A DNA stretch of 64,000 nt from Mauremys mutica. Its lineage: Eukaryota > Chordata > Testudines > Geoemydidae. Positions 6,815-47,900 of the stretch are shown one piece after another. The translations under genes were made by a program, and so were the position numbers. How positions within the stretch are numbered: position 1 is the first letter of the stretch; each line of letters opens with the position of its first letter. The notes below the pieces were generated by a model, which saw nothing but the letters and a program-made list of their open reading frames with translations, did no database searches and had not been told where the DNA came from. The stretch is taken from NCBI RefSeq assembly GCF_020497125.1, contig NC_059080.1, positions 74,940,618 to 75,004,617 of the forward strand, written 5' to 3'.

Positions 6815-7169
6815 CTCCTTCCCCCCCCTCCGGGGGGGGGGTCGTGCCCCATCCAACCCCTCATGTTCCTTGGCACACACACTCCGAGACCCCTGACCCA
6901 TCCTCCCCTTCCCTGTCCCCTGACTGCCCCTTGCTGCCCCACCCAATCCCTCCTCTCATTCTCAATGGACCCCCAGAACCCCTACCCCATATAACTACCC
7001 CTTCTCTCTGTTCCTGAGTGCCCCCGCCACCTCATCCAACCCTGCTCTTTCCTGACTGCTCCCCGGGACCCTTGCCCCCATTCAATCCCCCTGTTCCCTG
7101 CCCTCTGACCCTCCCACCCCCAAACTCCCCTACCCTCTCTCCAACACCCCCTCCCTGCCCCCTTACCAC

Positions 7170-7880
7170 GCTGCCTGGACGTGGCTGGGCCGGGACAGGA
7201 GTCGCACGGCCGGAGGATGCGGCGGGAGCCCAGCGGTCGGAGCCAGGTGGCTGGCCGGGTGGAGCCAGGGAGGGCTGCGGCCAGAGCTGGAGCCGGGCAG
7301 CCTGCCGGAGCCCGGCCCCCTGGCAAAACAGCAGGGGCGGCTGGAGCCACGGGGCCAGGCCGGGCTGGAGGTGGGGGGCCGTGTCCAGAGCCGAGCATCC
7401 CGGTAGGTGGGGGCACGGCAGGGCCGGGGGGGGGTTGCGGCAGGAGCCGGGCAGCCGGGGAGGGGTTTGGGGGGGGGGTCGGGGACGCGGGGCCGTGCCG
7501 CAGCCGGTGAGGGTCGGGCGGGGACCCGGGGACGGGGGGGCGGGCCCGGGAGGGTCGCGGCAGGGGCCGCGGGGCCGGGAACGCGGGGGGGGGGGCGCGG
7601 CCAGGGAGGGTCAGGCGGGGACCCGGGGAGGGTGCGGCCGGAGCCGGGCGGCCGGGGAGGGGTTCGGGGGGAGTCGGGGACGCGGGGACGGGGAGGGTCG
7701 CGGCCGGGGACGGGGGGCCGTGCCGCAGCCGGTGAGGGTCGTGCGGGGACCCGGGGCCGGGGGGGGCCGGGCAGGGTCGCGGCCGGGAACGCGGGGGGGG
7801 GGACGCGGGGACAGGGGGGGCCGGGGGGCCGGGCAGGGTCGCGGGCGGGGAGGCGGGGACGGGCCGCGCCCCCCCCCTTA
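7170..7880. repeat. CpG-dense GC-rich core with imperfect internal duplication
   Basis: The sequence is almost entirely G and C with many CpGs. Two sets of blocks recur: GAGCCGGGC(A/G)GCCGGGGAGG at 7444 and 7641 (offset 197), and GGCCGTGCCGCAGCCGGTGA at 7491 and 7717 (offset 226). The core therefore grew by local duplication with small indels. It would score as a CpG island, but it lies wholly within the hAT element. Confidence 0.7.
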
Positions 7881-8033
7881 GTTTCCTACCTCAGCGTCGT
7901 CTTCCTGGGCCGGGGAAGCCTGCTTGCTTCTCAGCCCTCCCAGGCTTCCCGCGCGAACAGCTGATTCGCGGGAAGCCGTGGGGGAGGAGAAGCAAGGAGG
8001 AGCTTCATGGCAGGAGGTGGAGGTAGAATTCGC

Positions 8034-17859: not shown

Positions 17860-19482
17860 TTTAAAGGTAACTTGGCCAAGGCTACATGATGAGTGAATTA
17901 ACATATTGCCAAACCAACCTGATCTCCTTCTTTGAGAAGGTAACAGATTTTTTAGACAAAGGAAATGCAGTGGATCTAATTTACCCTGATTTCAGTAAGG
18001 CATTTGATACGGTTCCACATGGGGAATTATTAGCTAAATTGGAAAAGATGGGGATCAATATGAAAATTGAAAGGTGGATAAGGACTTGTTTAAAGGGGAG
18101 ACTACAATGGGTTGTACTGAAAGGTGAACTGTCAGGCTGGAGGGAGGTTACTAATGGAGTACTAATGGGGATCGGTTTTGGGACCAATCTTTTTATTACT
18201 GACCTTGGCACAAAAAGTGGGAATGTGCTAATAAAGTTTATGGATGACACGAAGCAGGAAGGTATTGCCAATACAGAGAAGGACCGGGATATCATACAGG
18301 AAGATCTGGATGACCTTGTAAACAGGAGTATTAGTAATAGTATGAAATTTAATAGTGAAAAGTGCAAGGTCATGCATTTAGAGATTAATAACAAGAATTA
18401 TTGTTATAAGCTGGGGATGCATCAGTTGGAAGTAACAGAGGAGAAGAAGGACCTCGGAGTATTGGTTGATCACAGGATGACTATGGTCTGCCAATGTTAT
18501 ATGGCCATGAAAAAAGCTAATGCAGTCTTGGGATGCATCAGGCGAGGTATTTCCAGTAGAGATAAGGCGGTGTTAGTACCATTATACAAAGCACTGGTGA
18601 GACTTCATCTGGAATACTGTGTGCAGTTCTGGTCTCCCATGTTTAAGAAGGATGAATTCAAACTGGAACAGGTATAGAGAAGGGCTACTAGGATGATCCA
18701 AGGAATGGAAAACCTGTCTTATGAAAGAAGACTCAAAGAGCTTGGCTTGTTTAGCCTAACTAAAAGAAGGCTGAGGGGAGATATGATTGCCCTCTATAAA
18801 TATATCAGAGGAATAAATATGAGGGAGGGAGAGGAATTATTTAAGCTCAGTACCAATGTGGACACAAGAACAAATGGATATAAACTGACCATCAGGAAGT
18901 TTAGACTTGAAATTAGACTAAGGTTTCTAACCATCAGAGGAGTGAAGTTCTGGAACAGTCTTCCAAGGGTAGTAGTGGAGGCAAAAGACATATCTGGCTT
19001 CAAGACTAAGCTTGATAAGTTTATGGAGGAGATGGTATGATGGGATAGCCTAAATTTTGCAATTGGTCCTTGACTATTAGCGGTAAATATGCCCAATGGC
19101 TTGTGATGGGATGTTAGATGGGGTGGGATCTGAGTTACTACAGAGAATTCTTTTCTGGGTGTCTGGCTGGTGAGTCTTGCTGACATGATCAGGGTTTAGC
19201 TGATCACCATCTTTGGGGTCGGGAAGGAATTTTCCTCCAGGGCAGATTGGCAGAGGCCCTGGGGGTTTTTTTTTTGCCTTCTTCTGCAGCGTGGGGCATG
19301 GGTGATTTGATGGAAGATTGTCTGCATCTTGAAGTCTTTAAACCATGATTTGAGGACTTCAATGGCTCAGACACAGGTTTGATACAGGAGTGTGTGGGTG
19401 AGATTCTGTGGCCTGCGTTGTGCAGGAGGTCAGACTAGATGATCATAATGGTCCCTTCTGACCTTAAAGTCTATGATTCTAT
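17860..19482 (+). mobile_element. CR1 LINE, 5'-truncated
   Basis: The copy enters within the reverse transcriptase domain, runs through the end of ORF2 (19040) and a 3' UTR of about 440 bp, and ends with GGTCCCTTCTGACC followed by TCTATGATTCTATATC, the characteristic CR1 3' terminus. CR1 elements move by target-primed reverse transcription and are usually 5'-truncated, as here. A (G)n(T)n run interrupts the 3' UTR near 19260-19275. Confidence 0.9.
17886..19040 (+). pseudogene. CR1 ORF2 reverse transcriptase, C-terminal part, inactive
   Basis: This frame encodes the palm, thumb and C-terminal parts of a CR1 reverse transcriptase, the enzyme that copies LINE RNA at a nicked target. Visible motifs are DFSKAFDT (residues 35-42, motif A), FMDDTK (118-123, the catalytic Asp pair, usually FADDTK) and a C-terminal FWNSLPR block. 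The usual PQGS segment before LGP is lost (residues 91-107 read GVLMGIGFG). One in-frame TAG at 18675-18677 interrupts an otherwise continuous frame, which resumes unchanged to 19040. The endonuclease and ORF1 are absent through 5' truncation. It is clearly a dead copy, though only moderately decayed. Confidence 0.88.
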
Positions 19483-23471: not shown

Positions 23472-23598
<127 letters not shown>

Positions 23599-32890: not shown

Positions 32891-32895
32891 AGCCC
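32891..32895. repeat. Target site duplication AGCCC (left copy)
   Basis: AGCCC directly precedes the left LTR and recurs directly after the right LTR at 38441-38445. A 5-bp duplication is typical of LTR-retroelement integrases. Confidence 0.9.
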
Positions 32896-33977
32896 TGTGA
32901 CGGTGCTGCCCGTGGGAGCCAGCTGAGGTCACTCAATTAGGGTGAACTGCAAACCAAACAGGGCAGACAAACCCCAAATGCTGGTGGTTATTCCAATACT
33001 TAGATTTACCAACCAGCACAAAACAGCTTCTACAGTACCTTACTGGTCACTTAGAGTCCAAACCATGCAGTTCCCTTAAAGTGCCCAGCCTCAGGCCTCC
33101 GTCCAGACACACCTGTCAGATATGATGATGATTCCTAAGAATCTTACTTCATCATATAAAAGAAAAGGTTCTTCCAATCCCAAAGGATCAGCCACATACC
33201 CAGGTCCAATTATAACTTAGATCTTACCCAAAATACACGCTAGAGCCAATTCTTATTAACTAAGCTAAAATTTATTAAAAAAGAAAAGAGAGAGAGTGTT
33301 GGTTAAAAGATTAATCTACAGACAGACTTGAATTCAATTCTTGAGATTCAGATACACAGCAGAGATAAGCTTGTAGTTGCCAAAAGTTCTTTTAGAAATA
33401 GTCCATAGGTTATAGTCCAATTTCCATATTCAGGGTGGCTCCAGTCAATGACTGTGGATCTCAATCCTTATGGCTTAAGGTTTCCCCCTCTTGAAACCCA
33501 AAGCAGATCTGAGATGAAGAAGGATCGTGTCCCAGGGTTCTTATACATTTCCAGCAGCCTTTCGGCCTGAGAAAACAATAGGCTTAATTCCTTCTCCCAA
33601 ACATCCTGGCAATTAGCAGAGTAATGTATCCATTAAACAGTTCAGATACAGGTTAGCACAACCTTCAAAGAGATACATAGACAATAATACTATTTCACTC
33701 AAGTATCATTATAAATGTTAATATTCCCTTTTTTGATCTTTGAATTAAAACGATAGCAATAGACAAGACTTGTTTGCTGACATCCCAAGACCTGAGCAAA
33801 CATCTCCCCTTCTACCTCTAACAATGCAGACTTGCATTTCAAAGCTCTGTTCATTTACATATCTTCCTAACCCGTCCTCAAGGTTCACCCATGGGTCAGG
33901 TCAGTCTGTGAGTTAATTAACTCTTTCTGGCCCTGTCATCTTTCAATGAGATATTATATCACAGTCATAACGTCACA
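32896..33977 (-). repeat. 3' LTR of the minus-strand element
   Basis: This is a 1,082-bp LTR with 7-bp inverted tips (TGTGACG/CGTCACA). It is identical to 37360-38440 by line-by-line reading except for one extra G. It holds an AATAAA signal on the minus strand and a TATA-like box (TATAAG) about 265 bp upstream of it. The last eight codons of the internal frame, including its stop, lie inside this LTR. Confidence 0.95.
33271..33276 (-). terminator. Polyadenylation signal AATAAA in the 3' LTR
   Basis: On the minus strand the LTR contains TTTTTTAATAAATTTTAG. In the 3' LTR this would end the element's transcript. The same signal is at 37735-37740 in the 5' LTR. Confidence 0.6.
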
Positions 33978-36900
33978 CCCCCAACGCAAAATTGATGCAG
34001 GAAGGGATGACACAAACATCACTGACTGCATCCCAAAAGCTCCCCATCCTGGGTTTTGTTTTATTACAGCTTGTATTGGGTTAGAAGCCATGTTACTGTA
34101 TAACAGAAATGGTTTACCCAACTCATGTTCAATAACATGATTGAATCTTTTTATGAACTTAAGGTAAAACTTGGTTAGAACAATAGTGGATTGGATCTGC
34201 TCTTGCAGCAGGGTTCCTGTATGTTTCATGTGATCTTGCCAAGAGCTAAAGAAACTAGCTATTTTATTTATACAAGCTTTGGCAAATGCCTGGATCCCAA
34301 TTAACATTAAACCAATGTAGATATTAATGTTGTTCATTGTACAGGAATCTTGGCATTTAGCCATGCAAGCAATATGGTAGTGTGCCTCAGTTTCCCTTTT
34401 AACACAGCACATTAGGTCTGGAATGTCTTTTCTCCTATGAAAAGTTCCAAGACTGTTTATAGGCACTAACAGTGAAACATTAGTATAACAAGGCCTTTTA
34501 ACATAAAGTGGGTTCTTATGCATTGCTTTTAACATGTTCAAGGGATTTACCATAAGATTAGGCACATTGTACATTTTTACATTTCTTGGTAATAGCAACA
34601 CATTAGTTATAAACATTACCATCAGCAATAACAACAAATTTATTGCAGGTGTCCATCTACCATCACGTTTGCTATGCCACACCTTTGGCTCAATACCATT
34701 GGGGTTTGGGCCTTTTAGGGTTACCCTGTGGCTTTCCTTTGCAAAATTAAGTTTTTTCTTTTCTCCTTGTCCTGAAGGATTAAACCCTGATTTCTTTTGT
34801 TTAACAGAATTCACTGGCTGATGGGGTGGGCTCTGTTTGCTAACAGCTATTAGCAAGTCTTTCTTCTCCCTGCCAGCCAAGTAATTTGCATCAACACAGA
34901 CACTAGCTTTTAGATTTTTAGCTGCTACCCATTCCAAGGCTGGACTTTGTTTTACAGAGATATCACACAATTCCAAATAGTTTGAGGGTGAGAGTTCACT
35001 TGCTTTCCCCTGCATCCTCAAGCATTCAGCCATAAAACTGTTTTGCTTTGAAACACCAGTAACCAAATTTCTTTTTAAATCCTGAAGCACAGACTGGTTA
35101 CTTACAGAATCAGCATGGAGACAGTCCTGTCCCAACACCATGGTCTTTCCAACAGGCTGGCCACACACAGCCACCTGGTTATATGGCTGCTTAACTTTCT
35201 TAACAGCTTCTACTTCATCTGAGACCTTCTCTAAGCTACCCACACTGGATCTCTCAAAAGGAAAGTCAGTGGATCCATTCACAACAGAAAATTTCTGGCT
35301 GTTAGGAAATGAAACCTTTTTGATTAAATTACTTTTACACCCTTCAGTCGCAGTAAACTGCTTGCACAGATTACCAGGAGGATTTCTTTCCTTAGCAGCT
35401 TCTCTAAGCAACAATTTACCTTTCACAGAAATTCTGCTCTTACCCTCTTCACCCAGGGCTTGCTCTAAAGGAACACTTTCCTGAGCCACAACAGACTCTT
35501 TCTGGGTTTTACTTACATTCATGATCACCTTTGGCCCTTCAGGCAGATTTCTAGACAATTTCCTTTTAGGCAAACCTACAGACTTTCTAAATAACAGGTT
35601 AGAAGCAATCTCCTTCCCTTGGCCATGAACTAGTTCAGGAATCTTTTCCTTCTTGCTACAAGTTGTTAAACTGTCAGTAGGTAACACACTTAAATCACCT
35701 TCATGCTCTCCTTGTGCCCTGGCTAGGGTATCACCCTGATCAGACAGCGTTGCTGCACCCTTTTCCAACCACACATTAGCAACTGGCAAACTATAAGCAC
35801 CAGAATTGTCTGGTCTCTGGGATTTTGCTAAGACACTAACTGGATGCAACCTAGTTACAGTGCCATTCTCCCCAGCAGACACAAACTTAGGACCGTTCCC
35901 TTCCTGGGCTTTAGCTGTATCCACAACCAACTCTGAGACAACTGCACTATTCTCAACCATCACAGGCTGACAGGCACCTTCTGTCTGCTCCACAGACAAA
36001 GAAAAGCTGGAGACACATTCTCCTCCACTAGACACACAGCTTGGAATGTTACTTCCCTGGTCCCAGCACACAGGGCTGTTCACAGACAACTGCTTGGAGA
36101 CCGAGGTAGCTCCCTCCATAGGCAAGTCAATACCCCTGACAGACACAGGCACATTCCCTTCACTGTCACATTTCTCCACACAGGACACAGGTAAGGGATA
36201 GGGACACTCATCTTCCACTATCCCTCCCTTCCCAAACTGCTGACTGGACAAAGCCATCAGCTCACAAGGCTGCCTAGGCTTATCCAGACTTTCCCTGCCA
36301 GGCACATTGCCACTCCCAACAGATAAACTGCTGCTCTTTTCACTACACTGAGCTACTTCCAGCAAATCACAGTTACCCATTTTAGGTTCACTTTTACAAG
36401 CTGTACTAGCCACCAATCCATCACCCATCACAGATCTACCCTTTCCTTCCTCAGTTAGGGCTTTCACCTGACCATCTACTTTAATCTGCTTCTGAGAAAT
36501 ATTCTCCTCACCAATGAGATTTTTTTGCTCCTGATCTAATTCCAGATTTACTTCTGAGACATTAGACAGACATTCAGAAACTTCATTCACAGACAAACAG
36601 CTATTTCCCACCAGGTTAGAATCCCCCTCTGCATAGCCATAGCAAAACTGGTTAAACACAGAAAACTGCCCAGAGTAATACCACATATCCACACAGTTAT
36701 AAACTGGATTTTCAAGAGGATACAGTTTCTGCTGTTCTTCCATTGCTTTTTTGACTTGGAGCTGGAGTCTAGCAGTTTCTTGTTGCATCTTCTGGGTCTC
36801 CTGTTTCAGCTCCTGTTGCCTCTGTAGAGCTTTCTCCTCAGCAGCCAGTAATTCCAGACGCCCCTTACGAGCTTTTTCTTCTCTCTCATCAGCCTCCTTC

Positions 36901-37241
36901 TTTCTTTTAGCAGCTTCTTTCTCTCTTTCAGCAGCTTCTTTCTCTCTTTCAGCAGCTTCTCTTTCGAATTCAGCTATTTTTTGCCTTTCCAGCAATCGAA
37001 GATCTGCTAGTTTCTGTTCATGCTCCAGTTGCAGTTTATTTGCTGCCTTATTTATTCTAATTGTTTCTGCATTTTCTGTAGCATCAGGTAAGGGCCGTGC
37101 TCCTGCCTCCTGATCACTGGCCGTTAACAGATCTCTCATTTCTTGATTTGTAGCTTTCTTTCTAAAGCTTATCCCCTTTCCTGAACACAAATCTTCCAGG
37201 GCTTTTTTGTCAAGACCCTCATATGCTCTTTGCTCATCCAT
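33954..37241 (-). CDS. Gag-like/membrane fusion protein of the LTR element, 1,095 aa
   Basis: The start ATG (37239-37241) lies about 107 nt after the primer site in a good context (G at -3, G at +4). Residues 5-42 resemble a SAP-type helix-extended loop-helix. Residues 60-172 form a highly charged coiled coil with repeated AAEREKE heptads. Residues 180-205 are aromatic and rich in Tyr and Cys. Residues 210-860 are Ser/Val/Lys-rich with scattered Cys and no domain I recognise. Residues 867-885 are a strong membrane segment (INLLLLLMVMF...), followed by a Cys-rich part with an N-glycosylation site (TNVS) and a second hydrophobic segment at about 973-992. Capsid, zinc knuckle, protease and pol are not visible. 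The N-terminus fits Gag; the C-terminus could come from an envelope-like or accessory reading frame. The frame is completely open, implying recent selection or very recent formation. Function unknown. Confidence 0.75.
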   Translation of the reverse strand: MDEQRAYEGLDKKALEDLCSGKGISFRKKATNQEMRDLLTASDQEAGARPLPDATENAETIRINKAANKLQLEHEQKLADLRLLERQKIAEFEREAAEREKEAAEREKEAAKRKKEADEREEKARKGRLELLAAEEKALQRQQELKQETQKMQQETARLQLQVKKAMEEQQKLYPLENPVYNCVDMWYYSGQFSVFNQFCYGYAEGDSNLVGNSCLSVNEVSECLSNVSEVNLELDQEQKNLIGEENISQKQIKVDGQVKALTEEGKGRSVMGDGLVASTACKSEPKMGNCDLLEVAQCSEKSSSLSVGSGNVPGRESLDKPRQPCELMALSSQQFGKGGIVEDECPYPLPVSCVEKCDSEGNVPVSVRGIDLPMEGATSVSKQLSVNSPVCWDQGSNIPSCVSSGGECVSSFSLSVEQTEGACQPVMVENSAVVSELVVDTAKAQEGNGPKFVSAGENGTVTRLHPVSVLAKSQRPDNSGAYSLPVANVWLEKGAATLSDQGDTLARAQGEHEGDLSVLPTDSLTTCSKKEKIPELVHGQGKEIASNLLFRKSVGLPKRKLSRNLPEGPKVIMNVSKTQKESVVAQESVPLEQALGEEGKSRISVKGKLLLREAAKERNPPGNLCKQFTATEGCKSNLIKKVSFPNSQKFSVVNGSTDFPFERSSVGSLEKVSDEVEAVKKVKQPYNQVAVCGQPVGKTMVLGQDCLHADSVSNQSVLQDLKRNLVTGVSKQNSFMAECLRMQGKASELSPSNYLELCDISVKQSPALEWVAAKNLKASVCVDANYLAGREKKDLLIAVSKQSPPHQPVNSVKQKKSGFNPSGQGEKKKLNFAKESHRVTLKGPNPNGIEPKVWHSKRDGRWTPAINLLLLLMVMFITNVLLLPRNVKMYNVPNLMVNPLNMLKAMHKNPLYVKRPCYTNVSLLVPINSLGTFHRRKDIPDLMCCVKRETEAHYHIACMAKCQDSCTMNNINIYIGLMLIGIQAFAKACINKIASFFSSWQDHMKHTGTLLQEQIQSTIVLTKFYLKFIKRFNHVIEHELGKPFLLYSNMASNPIQAVIKQNPGWGAFGMQSVMFVSSLPASILRWGCDVMTVI
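33978..33984 (-). promoter_or_regulatory. Candidate polypurine tract next to the 3' LTR
   Basis: On the minus strand GTTGGGGG directly abuts the LTR start TGTGACG. It is short for a plus-strand primer site, but it is in the required position. Confidence 0.5.
36903..36967 (-). repeat. 21-bp coding minisatellite in the coiled coil
   Basis: About three tandem 21-bp units encode the heptad AAEREKE and variants on the minus strand. Copy-number change here would lengthen or shorten the coiled coil by one heptad without breaking the frame. Confidence 0.7.
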
Positions 37242-37347
37242 TGCAACTGCTCCTTAACCAACCAAACTCTCAATACCAAAATTCCAATTTGGATAGCGTG
37301 GGGTTCTGACCCAAAGCTTAATTGACCTGGTTCTGTGGATCCTAGCA

Positions 37348-37358
37348 CGACTACGCCA
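37348..37358 (-). promoter_or_regulatory. Primer-binding site, tRNA-Ser type
   Basis: One base after the 5' LTR the minus strand reads TGGCGTAGTCG. This complements the 3' end CGACTACG-CCA found in vertebrate tRNA-Ser (AGA-type) acceptors. The match extends with small differences into the T-arm (ATCCT). The primer assignment is from memory of tRNA sequences. Confidence 0.65.
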
Positions 37359-37359
37359 C

Positions 37360-38440
37360 TGTGACGGTGCTGCCCGTGGGAGCCAGCTGAGGTCACTCAA
37401 TTAGGGTGAACTGCAAACCAAACAGGGCAGACAAACCCCAAATGCTGGTGGTTATTCCAATACTTAGATTTACCAACCAGCACAAAACAGCTTCTACAGT
37501 ACCTTACTGGTCACTTAGAGTCCAAACCATGCAGTTCCCTTAAAGTGCCCAGCCTCAGGCCTCCGTCCAGACACACCTGTCAGATATGATGATGATTCCT
37601 AAGAATCTTACTTCATCATATAAAAGAAAAGGTTCTTCCAATCCCAAAGGATCAGCCACATACCCAGGTCCAATTATAACTTAGATCTTACCCAAAATAC
37701 ACGCTAGAGCCAATTCTTATTAACTAAGCTAAAATTTATTAAAAAAGAAAAGAGAGAGAGTGTTGGTTAAAAGATTAATCTACAGACAGACTTGAATTCA
37801 ATTCTTGAGATTCAGATACACAGCAGAGATAAGCTTGTAGTTGCCAAAAGTTCTTTTAGAAATAGTCCATAGGTTATAGTCCAATTTCCATATTCAGGGT
37901 GGCTCCAGTCAATGACTGTGGATCTCAATCCTTATGGCTTAAGGTTTCCCCCTCTTGAAACCCAAAGCAGATCTGAGATGAAGAAGGATCGTGTCCCAGG
38001 TTCTTATACATTTCCAGCAGCCTTTCGGCCTGAGAAAACAATAGGCTTAATTCCTTCTCCCAAACATCCTGGCAATTAGCAGAGTAATGTATCCATTAAA
38101 CAGTTCAGATACAGGTTAGCACAACCTTCAAAGAGATACATAGACAATAATACTATTTCACTCAAGTATCATTATAAATGTTAATATTCCCTTTTTTGAT
38201 CTTTGAATTAAAACGATAGCAATAGACAAGACTTGTTTGCTGACATCCCAAGACCTGAGCAAACATCTCCCCTTCTACCTCTAACAATGCAGACTTGCAT
38301 TTCAAAGCTCTGTTCATTTACATATCTTCCTAACCCGTCCTCAAGGTTCACCCATGGGTCAGGTCAGTCTGTGAGTTAATTAACTCTTTCTGGCCCTGTC
38401 ATCTTTCAATGAGATATTATATCACAGTCATAACGTCACA
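37360..38440 (-). repeat. 5' LTR of the minus-strand element
   Basis: This is a 1,081-bp LTR and would drive transcription of the element. It is flanked outside by AGCCC (38441-38445). It begins TGTGACG and ends CGTCACA on either strand. It matches the 3' LTR except for one missing G near 38000. Confidence 0.95.
38003..38008 (-). promoter_or_regulatory. TATA-like box in the 5' LTR
   Basis: The minus strand reads TGTATAAGAACC. If it is the core promoter, transcription would start about 30 bp downstream, and the AATAAA at 37735-37740 would give an R region of about 250 bp. This is positional inference only. Confidence 0.4.
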
Positions 38441-38445
38441 AGCCC

Positions 38446-45706: not shown

Positions 45707-46420
45707 TTTGGTCAGTCTAGCTGTAGTCAGGTCCCATTCAGTTTCACTGGGATGTGGGTAATGGGGGAGCAGGCTTTGTGGGAACTTTGCCAACCCTGCC
45801 ATCTCCAATTGTCTTGGTATGGAGACATTGTTGGCCTCACTGGGTCTCACCCAACTGCTGACCCATCAGCTGACTCTGGTACTTGGAGGGGCACCCTCAG
45901 TTTCTTCACTGTCCCCCTTCCTGTCACTCAGCTGAGAGGACCTCCCACATCAGCAACGCATGCAGAGACATCAGGAAGCTTGCCCTTGCTATGCTCCCTT
46001 TATGCCTGCAGTGCCATATATATTTTCCAAGACAGGGAGCAGAGATGGGTGGCTGCAAAAACTGCTTATGGCCACTACTACGCTGAGGGATCTTTGAGTT
46101 CTTTCTGTATCCAAGTAACTCACCAAAGGCTTGGTTATGTAGCTAGTCAGCAGAGCAAAACTGGATCTGTTGCTTGTATATTTTATAGGAGAGGTTGAAA
46201 TTTATTGACATGAAATGACCATTGGTGGATTTGTTGAAGTTTCTTCTTACTACTCTCTTCTCTAACCCAAACAAGAATGGGTTATAAGGTCAAGAACTAG
46301 CAAAATGCTTACTGCATATTCTATGTAGGCTTGGAGGGATTAGATTTTTATCTGTAAAGGTTGATTTCACCATACATACACATAATGACACAAAATATTT
46401 CCATCAATAATAGAAATGTA
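45707..46420. other. No recognised gene
   Basis: A 148-codon frame (45752-46198) crosses this region. It has no recognisable domain and an overlapping frame of similar length on the other strand, so it is not called as a gene. Confidence 0.4.
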
Positions 46421-46424
46421 CAGA

Positions 46425-47900
46425 TAGGCCTAATAGCCAGTATTTCCGAGGCAAATCTACCTGAAAGTCAATATGGTTTTCGACCTAGCCGGAGCACAGT
46501 CGACATGGTGTTTGCTGTCAGACAAATACAAGAGAAGTGCATTGAACAGAACATGCACCTGTATGCTGTCTTCATAGATCTGACAAAGGCATTTGATACC
46601 ATCAACAGGGAAGCCCTTTGGACTATTCTAACACGACTTGGCTGCCCAAGAAAATTTGTCCAGATTATACGCCTTTTTCATGACAGCATGACAGGCGAAG
46701 TATTGTCTGATGGAGCCACATCTGCCCCCTTCAGCATCACCAATGGCATAAAACAAGGATGTGTTCTTGCTCCTGTCTTATTTAACCTGTTCTTTGCATG
46801 CGTCCTCAACCATGCAATGAAAGATCTGGATCAAGGTATATATTTGAATTACCGGCACGATGGTTCACTTTTTGACCTCCGTCGCCTGAATGCAAAGACT
46901 AAGACAGTGCAGAAACTCCTTCTTGAGGCACTCTTTGCCAATGACTGTGCCCTCATGGCTCACACTGAAAATGATCTTCAGCACATTGTCAACAAGTTTG
47001 CTGGGGCCTCGCAACTCTTCGGACTAACTATCAGCCTTGGAAAGACAGAAGTTCTCCATCAACCTGTACCTGGATCACATGCTTCTGTCCCAAGTATCTC
47101 CATTGATGGCACTCAGCTTAAAGTAGTGGAGAACTTTAAATACCTGGGTAGTGTCATATACAGTGATGGATCACTGGATAATGAGATCAACGCACGAATA
47201 TCCAAAGCAAGCCAGGCACTGTCAAAGTTTTAAAGTTTTAAACCACCACAACATCTGGATGTCAACAAAACTGCATGTGTACAGAGCTGCTGCTGTTTCA
47301 TCTCTTTTGTACAGATTTGAAACATGGACACTATATATATATATATATAGGCGTCACATAAAGCAGCTCGAAGCATTCCACATGTGTTGCCTCCACAACA
47401 TCATGAAGATCCGCTGGCAAGACAAAGTGCCCAATCTTGAGGTCCTCGAGAGAGCCCAGATGACAAGCATCGAAATGATGATCATGAAGTCACAGCTACA
47501 TTGGACCAGTCATGTCAGCCGCATGGATGCCAACAGAATCCCCCGCCAGCTTCTCTATGGTGAGCTCTCCCAGGGCATCTGGCATATAGGTCGTCCACGA
47601 AAACGTTACAAGGACACCATCAAAGCCAATCTGCAGTATAGCAGTATCAAACCCAGGGACCTTGAGGACGCCGCCAGCGACAGAACACAGTGGCATGCAA
47701 CTGTCAGAAATACATGCATCGCCTTTGAGGAAGACCACTGCCGGTGTCTACAAGAGGCACGCGAACGACGTCACAGAGCACCAGCAACGCACAACCCACT
47801 GACTGCGAACTTCCCATGCACCATCTGCAGCTAAATGTGCACCTCTAGAACTGGCTTGTATAGCGATCAGAGGGCACACCATGAGACCAACAATAGATGA
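46425..47900 (+). pseudogene. LINE reverse transcriptase with catalytic Asp lost and a frameshift
   Basis: The first frame (46361-47233, LINE homology from about 46425) carries motif A FIDLTKAFDT, the GIKQGCVLAPVLFNLFF block and the catalytic box as FAND instead of FADD (first Asp replaced by Asn, codon 46940-46942). An 8-bp tandem duplication (AAAGTTTT at 47224-47239) shifts the frame. The protein continues in the second frame (ending 47834) with QDKVPNLEVLERA and GRPRKRYKD blocks. A TA microsatellite inside the gene (47332-47349) adds YIYIY. A TAA at 47832-47834 cuts a C-terminal CTIC...H-H zinc-finger-like motif, which is still readable in frame to the TGA at 47898-47900. It is dead by several independent lesions. 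Confidence 0.85.
47332..47349. repeat. (TA)9 tract inside the LINE pseudogene
   Basis: A short perfect TA run sits within the former coding sequence. It is likely an expansion after the element died. Confidence 0.85.

What the first reader, a model, noticed from the sequence alone, without database searches (positions are those of the whole stretch)
32896..38440. Very young LTR element with one intact 1,095-codon frame and no visible pol
Seen: two LTRs of about 1.08 kb differing by one base in a G run, TGTGACG/CGTCACA tips, an AGCCC duplication, a primer site, and a frame open from near the primer site into the 3' LTR. Not seen: protease, reverse transcriptase, integrase or a capsid-like region. 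Inference: a non-autonomous element recently mobilised by a related autonomous one, carrying an open frame that combines a gag-like N-terminus with a membrane C-terminus. A long open frame in a non-autonomous LTR element is unusual and suggests the protein contributes to its own spread, or formed very recently.
Basis: partly seen in the sequence, partly recalled or inferred. Interest (0 to 1): 0.85.

Follow-up and report, generated by a model that had tools for sequence, protein, structure and literature searches.

The report
Pol-dead retrotransposon that keeps its frame
A young mobile element in what is probably a turtle genome has lost its copying enzymes yet keeps one unbroken reading frame, apparently because being translated, more than the exact protein made, helps its RNA be copied by an intact relative.

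Summary
In detail: a 5,545-bp element (32896..38440, minus strand), LTRs identical but for one indel, 5-bp target duplication, 1,095-codon frame. Two corrections. A partner with the same LTR and gag start exists, with SCAN, zinc knuckle, integrase and RT-RNase H, integrase first (Gmr1-like Ty3/gypsy). And pol is not absent: the "membrane" C-terminus is a shrunken, altered relic of integrase C-terminus and RT, in frame.

The frame is old: a Chrysemys protein shares the relic C-terminus and still has SCAN. In 13 of 18 other copies every piece read is open, despite swapped starts and large deletions. Of 454 distinct one-base codon variants 1 is a stop; 16-19 were expected. Yet most of the unique region does not reject dN/dS = 1; one segment is borderline.

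Best reading: a trans-mobilised parasite selected mainly for translation of its RNA from near the primer site to the 3' LTR (packaging in cis as in mouse IAP IDelta1, or avoidance of RNA decay). Identity firm; mechanism inferred.

The parts
37360..38440 (-). 5' LTR in element sense (1,081 nt)
   Evidence: within-copy LTR difference 0 substitutions, 1 indel
32896..33977 (-). 3' LTR (1,082 nt)
38441..38445 (.). target-site duplication, copy 1 (AGCCC on +)
32891..32895 (.). target-site duplication, copy 2
37341..37358 (-). primer-binding site, begins TGGCGTAGTCG; complementarity to the 3' end of tRNA-Ser(AGA) is recalled, not tested
   Evidence: sequence
33954..37241 (-). single 1,095-codon frame from about 118 nt after the 5' LTR to base 24 of the 3' LTR
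36747..37241 (-). aa 1-165: gag N-terminal coiled coil (recalled label) shared with the partner; ends before the partner's SCAN domain
   Evidence: 549 nt at 99.45% to partner-type copy L037
34662..36698 (-). aa 182-860: unique middle; aa 566-641 weakly similar (30%, E 9e-5) to the partner's stretch between protease and integrase
   Evidence: omega 0.78-0.91
34308..34610 (-). aa 878-978: relic of the integrase C-terminal region (19% identity, no gaps)
   Evidence: E 2e-4; aa 878-972, E 3.3e-4, probability 38%; 0 of 1000 shuffles
34056..34316 (-). aa 976-1062: relic of RT palm, connection and RNase H start with two in-frame deletions; YIDD reads CINK
   Evidence: E 1e-7; probability 96.9%, E 1.7e-10; 0 of 1000 shuffles
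33978..33985 (-). G-rich tract (GTTGGGGG) before the 3' LTR, probable polypurine tract
   Evidence: last 77 nt of internal region shared with partner copies

Best explanation
This is a young copy of a non-autonomous family derived from Gmr1-like Ty3/gypsy elements. It descends from an element whose gag-pol frame lost protease, integrase and RT function long ago but stayed in frame. A gag-pol partner with the same LTR and gag N-terminus supplies particles, RT and integrase in trans (inferred from shared ends and mosaics). The element's RNA is kept translatable from shortly after the primer site to just inside the 3' LTR. Selection acts mainly on that openness: either translation in cis, with a nascent gag coiled coil, helps the RNA enter the partner's particles (as reported for mouse IAP IDelta1), or a frame reaching the 3' LTR spares the RNA from decay aimed at long 3' UTRs. 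Shown: anatomy, partner, relic pol, frame retention, weak amino-acid constraint. Inferred: trans mobilisation and the reason the frame is kept.
For: Partner: L009, L010 and L011 share LTR (96-97%), most of the first ~450-550 internal nt and the last 77 nt, and carry gag, integrase and RT. Of 99 scored RT matches 19 are >=87% identical and 5 of those lie in open frames of 1,551-1,558 aa; for 3 of these 5 at least part of the 5' LTR was seen at 95-96%, the other 2 were not looked at. Relic pol. Age: P0001, Chrysemys, 67% over 867 aa, with SCAN and zinc knuckle and an altered protease motif. Frame retention: 13 of 18 other copies open in all pieces read; 1 of 454 distinct one-base codon variants is a stop, expected 15.6-18.7, P 1e-7 to 3e-6. 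Indels seen in more than one copy add up to multiples of 3; the 5 frame-breaking ones are each in a single copy. LTRs as non-coding control: in 11 copies 43 of 45 indels against the window are not multiples of 3 (L032 left out by hand). Geometry: ATG 116-170 nt after the 5' LTR and stop ending at base 24 of the 3' LTR in 6 of 9 non-autonomous copies measured; of the rest two are broken and singleton L043 stops 56 nt before the LTR. Weak amino-acid constraint: window vs L062, 286 differences in 871 codons, dN/dS 0.72, neutral simulations 0.63-0.75; omega 0.86, 0.79, 0.87, 1.72 by segment. Mosaics. Precedent: PMC6466679 passage.
Against: Five of 18 young copies are broken (L016, L020, L024, L028, L030), so an open frame is not needed at insertion or they broke soon after. 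L015 lacks the gag start and L043 most of the frame, yet both inserted. Segment aa 441-700 shows borderline purifying selection (omega 0.78, 2dlnL 3.97), so the product may matter there. The partner's own gag residues 1-165 give pairwise ratios 0.53-1.34, so a near-neutral ratio does not by itself show that a sequence is idle. Codon ML on partner gag (0.67, 2dlnL 1.10) and partner SCAN (0.70, 2dlnL 1.63) does not reject 1 either; only its pairwise ratios (0.39-0.43, six comparisons sharing L010) lie below neutral. Recombination among copies violates the single-tree assumption. In the second subfamily 77 of 128 matches lie in frames under 900 aa. No expression or mobilisation data.
Confidence: 0.6

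Rival explanations
1. The fusion protein itself is the selected product: its coiled-coil N-terminus co-assembles with partner Gag and its middle or C-terminus does specific work in cis or trans.
For: The N-terminus is shared with the partner's gag, omega 0.63, 2dlnL 4.3 with partner and old copies included; borderline constraint at aa 441-700, ratio 0.41-0.47 there in two pairwise comparisons; IAP IDelta1 fusion reported to act in cis; even real gag N-termini evolve at near-neutral ratios.
Against: C-terminus omega 1.47-1.72 and aa 182-440 omega 0.86-0.91, none rejecting 1; with non-autonomous copies alone aa 1-165 does not reject 1 either (0.63, 2dlnL 1.29); subfamilies lack about 280 codons of the C-terminal part or start with another N-terminus.
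Confidence: 0.25
2. No selection: copies are so young that the frame has not had time to break.
For: Within-copy LTR substitutions are 0-3 in 15 of 18 non-autonomous copies besides the window.
Against: The window differs from 10 of 12 copies by 3.1-5.5% in the first 2.05 kb of the frame (0.8 and 1.7% for mosaics L033 and L030) and from L062 by 11.6%, while frames stay open; stop deficit P <= 3e-6; the frame is recognisable in Chrysemys.
Confidence: 0.08
3. Captured host gene or envelope: the unique region is a membrane protein picked up from the host.
For: Hydrophobic stretch at aa 866-884; no Pfam domain.
Against: Order and similarity to partner integrase C-terminus and RT; protein-database hits only to element-like or chimaeric turtle models (in one search only the 7,988 candidates sharing most words were scored).
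Confidence: 0.03

Closest known systems
Mouse IAP IDelta1 elements
   Same: Non-autonomous LTR element whose deletion leaves one in-frame gag-pol fusion; partners supply proteins in trans; fusion reported to act in cis (PMC6466679 passage, citing Saito et al. 2008, which is not held)
   Different: IAP is retrovirus-like (recalled); here a Gmr1-like Ty3/gypsy. Pol is anciently decayed as well as deleted; several in-frame subfamilies; amino-acid constraint is weak
Gmr1-like Ty3/gypsy elements
   Same: Partner has integrase upstream of RT (criterion: PMC8220671 passage) and a SCAN gag (found in Gmr elements of frogs: PMC4131045 passages)
   Different: The window element lacks SCAN, zinc knuckle, protease and functional integrase and RT
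MusD/ETn pair of mouse
   Same: Master copies mobilise a non-autonomous partner with shared ends (title in a reference list seen; rest recalled)
   Different: ETn has no long retained frame (recalled)
Bovine ERVK[2-1-LTR] competent/defective system
   Same: Defective elements mobilised in trans, with simulations of high-affinity defective elements (PMC10924933 passages)
   Different: The defective element described in the passage has no full-length frames

Membership tests
LTR retrotransposon | Paired LTRs, target duplication, primer site, G-rich tract | tested here: met
   primer tRNA itself not tested
Gmr1-like Ty3/gypsy (partner) | Integrase encoded upstream of RT | tested here: met
   criterion from PMC8220671
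Gmr1-like Ty3/gypsy (partner) | SCAN-type gag | tested here: met
   SCAN E 7.9e-13 in L010
Gmr1-like Ty3/gypsy (partner) | RT phylogeny places it with Gmr1 | not tested
   no reference RT set was aligned
Autonomous element (window copy) | Functional protease, integrase, RT | tested here: not met
IAP IDelta1-like cis-acting fusion (mechanism) | In-frame gag-pol fusion in amplified non-autonomous copies | tested here: met
IAP IDelta1-like cis-acting fusion (mechanism) | Translation in cis raises transposition | not testable with these tools
   needs bench work
IAP proper | Belongs to the retroviral IAP lineage | tested here: not met
   partner has SCAN gag and integrase before RT; no IAP sequence was compared

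The most novel reading that the evidence does not exclude
A transposon family selected for an open frame as such: RNA survival or packaging depends on ribosomes travelling from near the primer site to the 3' LTR, while most of the encoded protein drifts nearly freely. The 'protein' would be mainly a by-product of keeping the RNA translated, and a large non-autonomous family in turtles would owe its success to this.
Probability: 0.35. Interest if true: 0.78.

Novelty: new variant of a known kind. Interest (0 to 1): 0.6.

Why it matters
Many non-autonomous LTR elements carry no long frame (recalled), and why some keep one is open. Here diverged lineages, swapped starts and in-frame deletions in one genome give a natural experiment separating 'the frame must be open' from 'the protein must be conserved'. 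If confirmed, it makes the role of translation and RNA quality control in trans mobilisation directly testable. It also suggests that turtle gene models such as LOC135982270 are element frames.

Tried and rejected
Pfam on four pieces of the frame: nothing above cut-off. PDB sequence search on two pieces: no relevant match. Hypermutation as origin of the decayed C-terminus: it has less G and more A and T than the partner, but at this divergence direction cannot be told; left open. L043 (gag N-terminus fused in frame to RT-connection/RNase H) looked like another amplified derivative but its junction has 1 match in the genome (up to 2 mismatches), so its frame carries little weight. Protein search for further relatives of the C-terminus: only P0001 itself. 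Not answered, the machine being busy each time: origin of the alternative N-terminus of L017; copy number of the large C-terminal deletion; a DNA search with the middle of the frame. Papers: the listings gave nothing specific; PMC2413153 is not held. My searches on non-autonomous LTR elements with retained frames, decay avoidance and turtle Gmr1/SCAN families listed no title or abstract start describing this family; beyond those I saw passages of PMC6466679, PMC11011659, PMC4131045, PMC10924933 and PMC8220671 and the abstract of PMC5580461, no whole text.

Rows dropped before counts. The 18 copies come from paired LTR hits and the best 5'-end hits, so they favour close relatives of the window. 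Left out: solo LTRs or LTR-only pieces (L019, L021), repeats of the same place (L001-L008, L023, L026, L031, L034, L035, L048), partner-type copies (L009-L011, L037, L038, L040-L042, L045, L047, L049-L052), old or partial copies (L039, L044, L046; L039 has 3 stops in aa 441-700), singleton L043, and places not fetched. L018 was dropped from the aa 861-1088 codon set as a misalignment. In one search the LTR of L032 is truncated and its row is meaningless; I left it out of the tally by hand. In one search L036 was listed but not picked up: 9 sequences with the window, 36 pairs. Rows with stops or under 90% cover were left out of the codon ML sets, which biases them to open pieces; the stop count kept them, but counts only one-base variants, so the stop of L024 at codon 572 (more than one base away from the window) is not among the 454; the one stop counted, at codon 863, occurs in two copies (L020, L028). 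One search aligns blocks, so large deletions are not among its indels.

Full report
The observation. In element sense the element lies on the minus strand: 5' LTR 38440..37360, primer site from 37358, frame 37241..33954, G-rich tract 33985..33978, 3' LTR 33977..32896, 5-bp duplication outside. The two LTRs differ by one indel. The host assembly has 2.48 Gb; the protein-database relatives found are all from turtles, so 'turtle' is likely but was not proved.

The partner. LTR matches elsewhere gave pairs at several spacings (40 of 3,701 candidates scored). Copies L009, L010 and L011 (internal 4.8 kb in L010) share the LTR at 96-97%, most of the first ~450-550 internal nt and the last 77 nt with the window. 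Their frames, each interrupted in these three copies, begin with the same gag start; the pieces tested in Pfam give SCAN and CCHC zinc knuckle, then H2C2 and rve integrase (L010), then RT and RNase H (L009), in that order along the element. A protease is indicated only by a DTG motif, not by Pfam. Integrase before RT is the Gmr1 arrangement (PMC8220671 passage), and SCAN was reported in more than half of Gmr elements of frogs (PMC4131045 passages); SCAN has been proposed to derive from retrotransposon gag (PMC11011659 passage). A search with the RT scored 99 of 18,212 candidates: 19 at 87% identity or more, 5 of these in frames of 1,551-1,558 aa, and 80 at 60-62%. So long open partner frames exist; I single out none.

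The frame. Residues 1-180 match the partner's gag N-terminus (145 of 180 with gaps to L010; 549 nt at 99.45% to partner-type L037, whose 197-nt LTR stretch is 95.4%). The partner's SCAN, zinc knuckle and protease stretch are missing. Residues 878-978 align without gaps to the partner's integrase C-terminal region at 19% and residues 976-1022 to the RT palm at 38%. A profile comparison extends the RT match to residues 975-1062 in three blocks with two deletions (probability 96.9%, E 1.7e-10); for the integrase part it is weaker (E 3.3e-4, probability 38%). None of 1,000 shuffles of the C-terminus reaches either score. The RT motif YIDD reads CINK.

Age of the frame. P0001, an annotated Chrysemys picta bellii protein of 1,430 aa, has the same N-terminus, SCAN and zinc knuckle above cut-off, and the same middle and relic C-terminus (67% identity over 867 aa). 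Its protease motif is DTA where the partner has DTG, and in L062 the motif is lost. Partial relatives are models from Chelonoidis and Chelonia. Whether the NCBI model was corrected for frame could not be checked. The window type therefore looks like a shortened form of an old pol-dead lineage.

How common. A search with the C-terminal 235 aa scored 150 of 1,647 candidates, tallied: 22 at >=87% identity (21 without a stop inside the match, 17 in open frames of >=900 aa, window included) and 128 at 68-78% (112 without a stop; 51 in frames >=900 aa, 49 of them without a stop; 77 in shorter frames). A fetched member of the second group, L062, has a 1,167-aa frame with another N-terminus.

Frame retention. 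I examined 18 other copies chosen by LTR or 5'-end similarity, not by frame. In 13 all pieces read are open: L012 (1,110 aa), L013 (1,052), L014 (746), L015 (556, without the gag start), L017 (1,044), L018 (759), L022 (1,095), and L025, L027, L029, L032, L033, L036 read in two overlapping pieces. L025 and L032 carry a large deletion that stays in frame. L014, L017, L018 and L020 start with a different N-terminal stretch, in frame with the common middle. Five are broken: L016 and L030 by frameshift, L024 and L028 by frameshift and stop, L020 by one stop. Against the window, 454 distinct one-base codon variants comprise 317 non-synonymous, 136 synonymous and 1 stop; 15.6-18.7 stops were expected, P 1e-7 to 3e-6. 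Indels found in more than one copy add up to multiples of three (some as compound replacements); the five frame-breaking indels are each in one copy. In the LTRs of 11 of the same copies 43 of 45 indels against the window are not multiples of three; many of these are shared, since all comparisons use the window. Within-copy LTR substitutions are 0-3 in 15 of 18 copies, while 10 of 12 copies differ from the window by 3.1-5.5% in the first 2.05 kb of the frame, so most divergence predates insertion.

Amino-acid constraint. Codon ML gave omega 0.63 for aa 1-165 (2dlnL 4.3 with partner and old copies; 0.63, 2dlnL 1.3 with 13 non-autonomous rows), and 0.86, 0.79, 0.87 and 1.72 for four unique segments, none rejecting 1. 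With L062 added: 0.91, 0.78 (2dlnL 3.97, borderline) and 0.90; the C-terminus in a wider set 1.47 (2dlnL 2.8). Window against L062: dN/dS 0.72 over 871 codons, neutral simulations averaging 0.63-0.75, about five stops per lineage expected without selection and none seen. The partner's gag residues 166-560 give 0.39-0.43 in six pairwise comparisons with L010, but its residues 1-165 give 0.53-1.34, and ML on partner gag or SCAN (0.67-0.70) does not reject 1. So the contrast with functional gag rests on the pairwise figures, and near-neutral ratios also occur in working gag termini. Pooled pN/pS of nine sequences: 0.34 for aa 1-165, 0.67 for aa 166-700, neutral range 0.65-0.87.

Mosaics. L033 is ~99% like the window in the first two thirds of the frame, 92% in the last third and 96% in the LTR. 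In aa 861-1088 L013, L058 and L060 are closer to L062 in their first 60-nt windows (the first five in L013, the first two in L058 and L060) and closer to the window copy after that, L022 being closer to the window copy throughout. Such switches are what template switching between co-packaged RNAs would give (inference from established retroviral recombination).

Mechanism. In 6 of 9 non-autonomous copies measured the frame starts 116-170 nt after the 5' LTR and the stop ends at base 24 of the 3' LTR, with internal lengths of 1.8-3.4 kb; L016 and L020 are broken and singleton L043 stops 56 nt before the LTR, as partner L010 does. Strict openness with weak sequence constraint points to translation of the RNA as the selected property. 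Two known processes could do this. Mouse IAP IDelta1 elements have an in-frame gag-pol fusion that is reported to act in cis (PMC6466679 passage). And mRNAs with long 3' UTRs are often degraded, against which Rous sarcoma virus has a stability element (PMC5580461 abstract). I cannot separate them here.

Verdict. An ordinary kind of object (a trans-mobilised non-autonomous LTR element) in an unusual, well-sampled evolutionary state. New variant of a known kind.

Noticed in passing
window 17886..18677 (+) and 46361..47834 (+): Open stretches resembling non-LTR (LINE) reverse transcriptase fragments (resemblance recalled, not tested)
   Followed up: no
window 7018..7964 (+): Overlapping long ORFs rich in Gly, Pro and Arg, suggesting a very G+C-rich stretch, with a 43-bp tandem repeat at 7504-7587
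   Followed up: no
window 23473..23596: Perfect (CA)62 microsatellite
   Followed up: no
window 36870..36974: 21/42-bp tandem repeat in the coiled-coil coding part; copies differ near here by 21- and 27-nt in-frame steps
   Followed up: partly
P0003, P0004 (Chelonia mydas): Database gene models fuse an olfactory receptor (P0003) or, by precomputed Pfam, zinc fingers (P0004) to this element's frame; likely annotation chimaeras
   Followed up: no
genome: A second RT family at 60-62% identity (80 of the 99 scored), many in frames above 1,600 aa: a larger relative with long open frames
   Followed up: no
L043 (1616..2632): Singleton with gag N-terminus fused in frame to RT-connection/RNase H (338 aa), stop at the partner's own stop
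   Followed up: yes
L014, L017, L018, L020, L062: Alternative N-terminal stretch before the shared coiled coil; source not found because the search did not complete
   Followed up: partly
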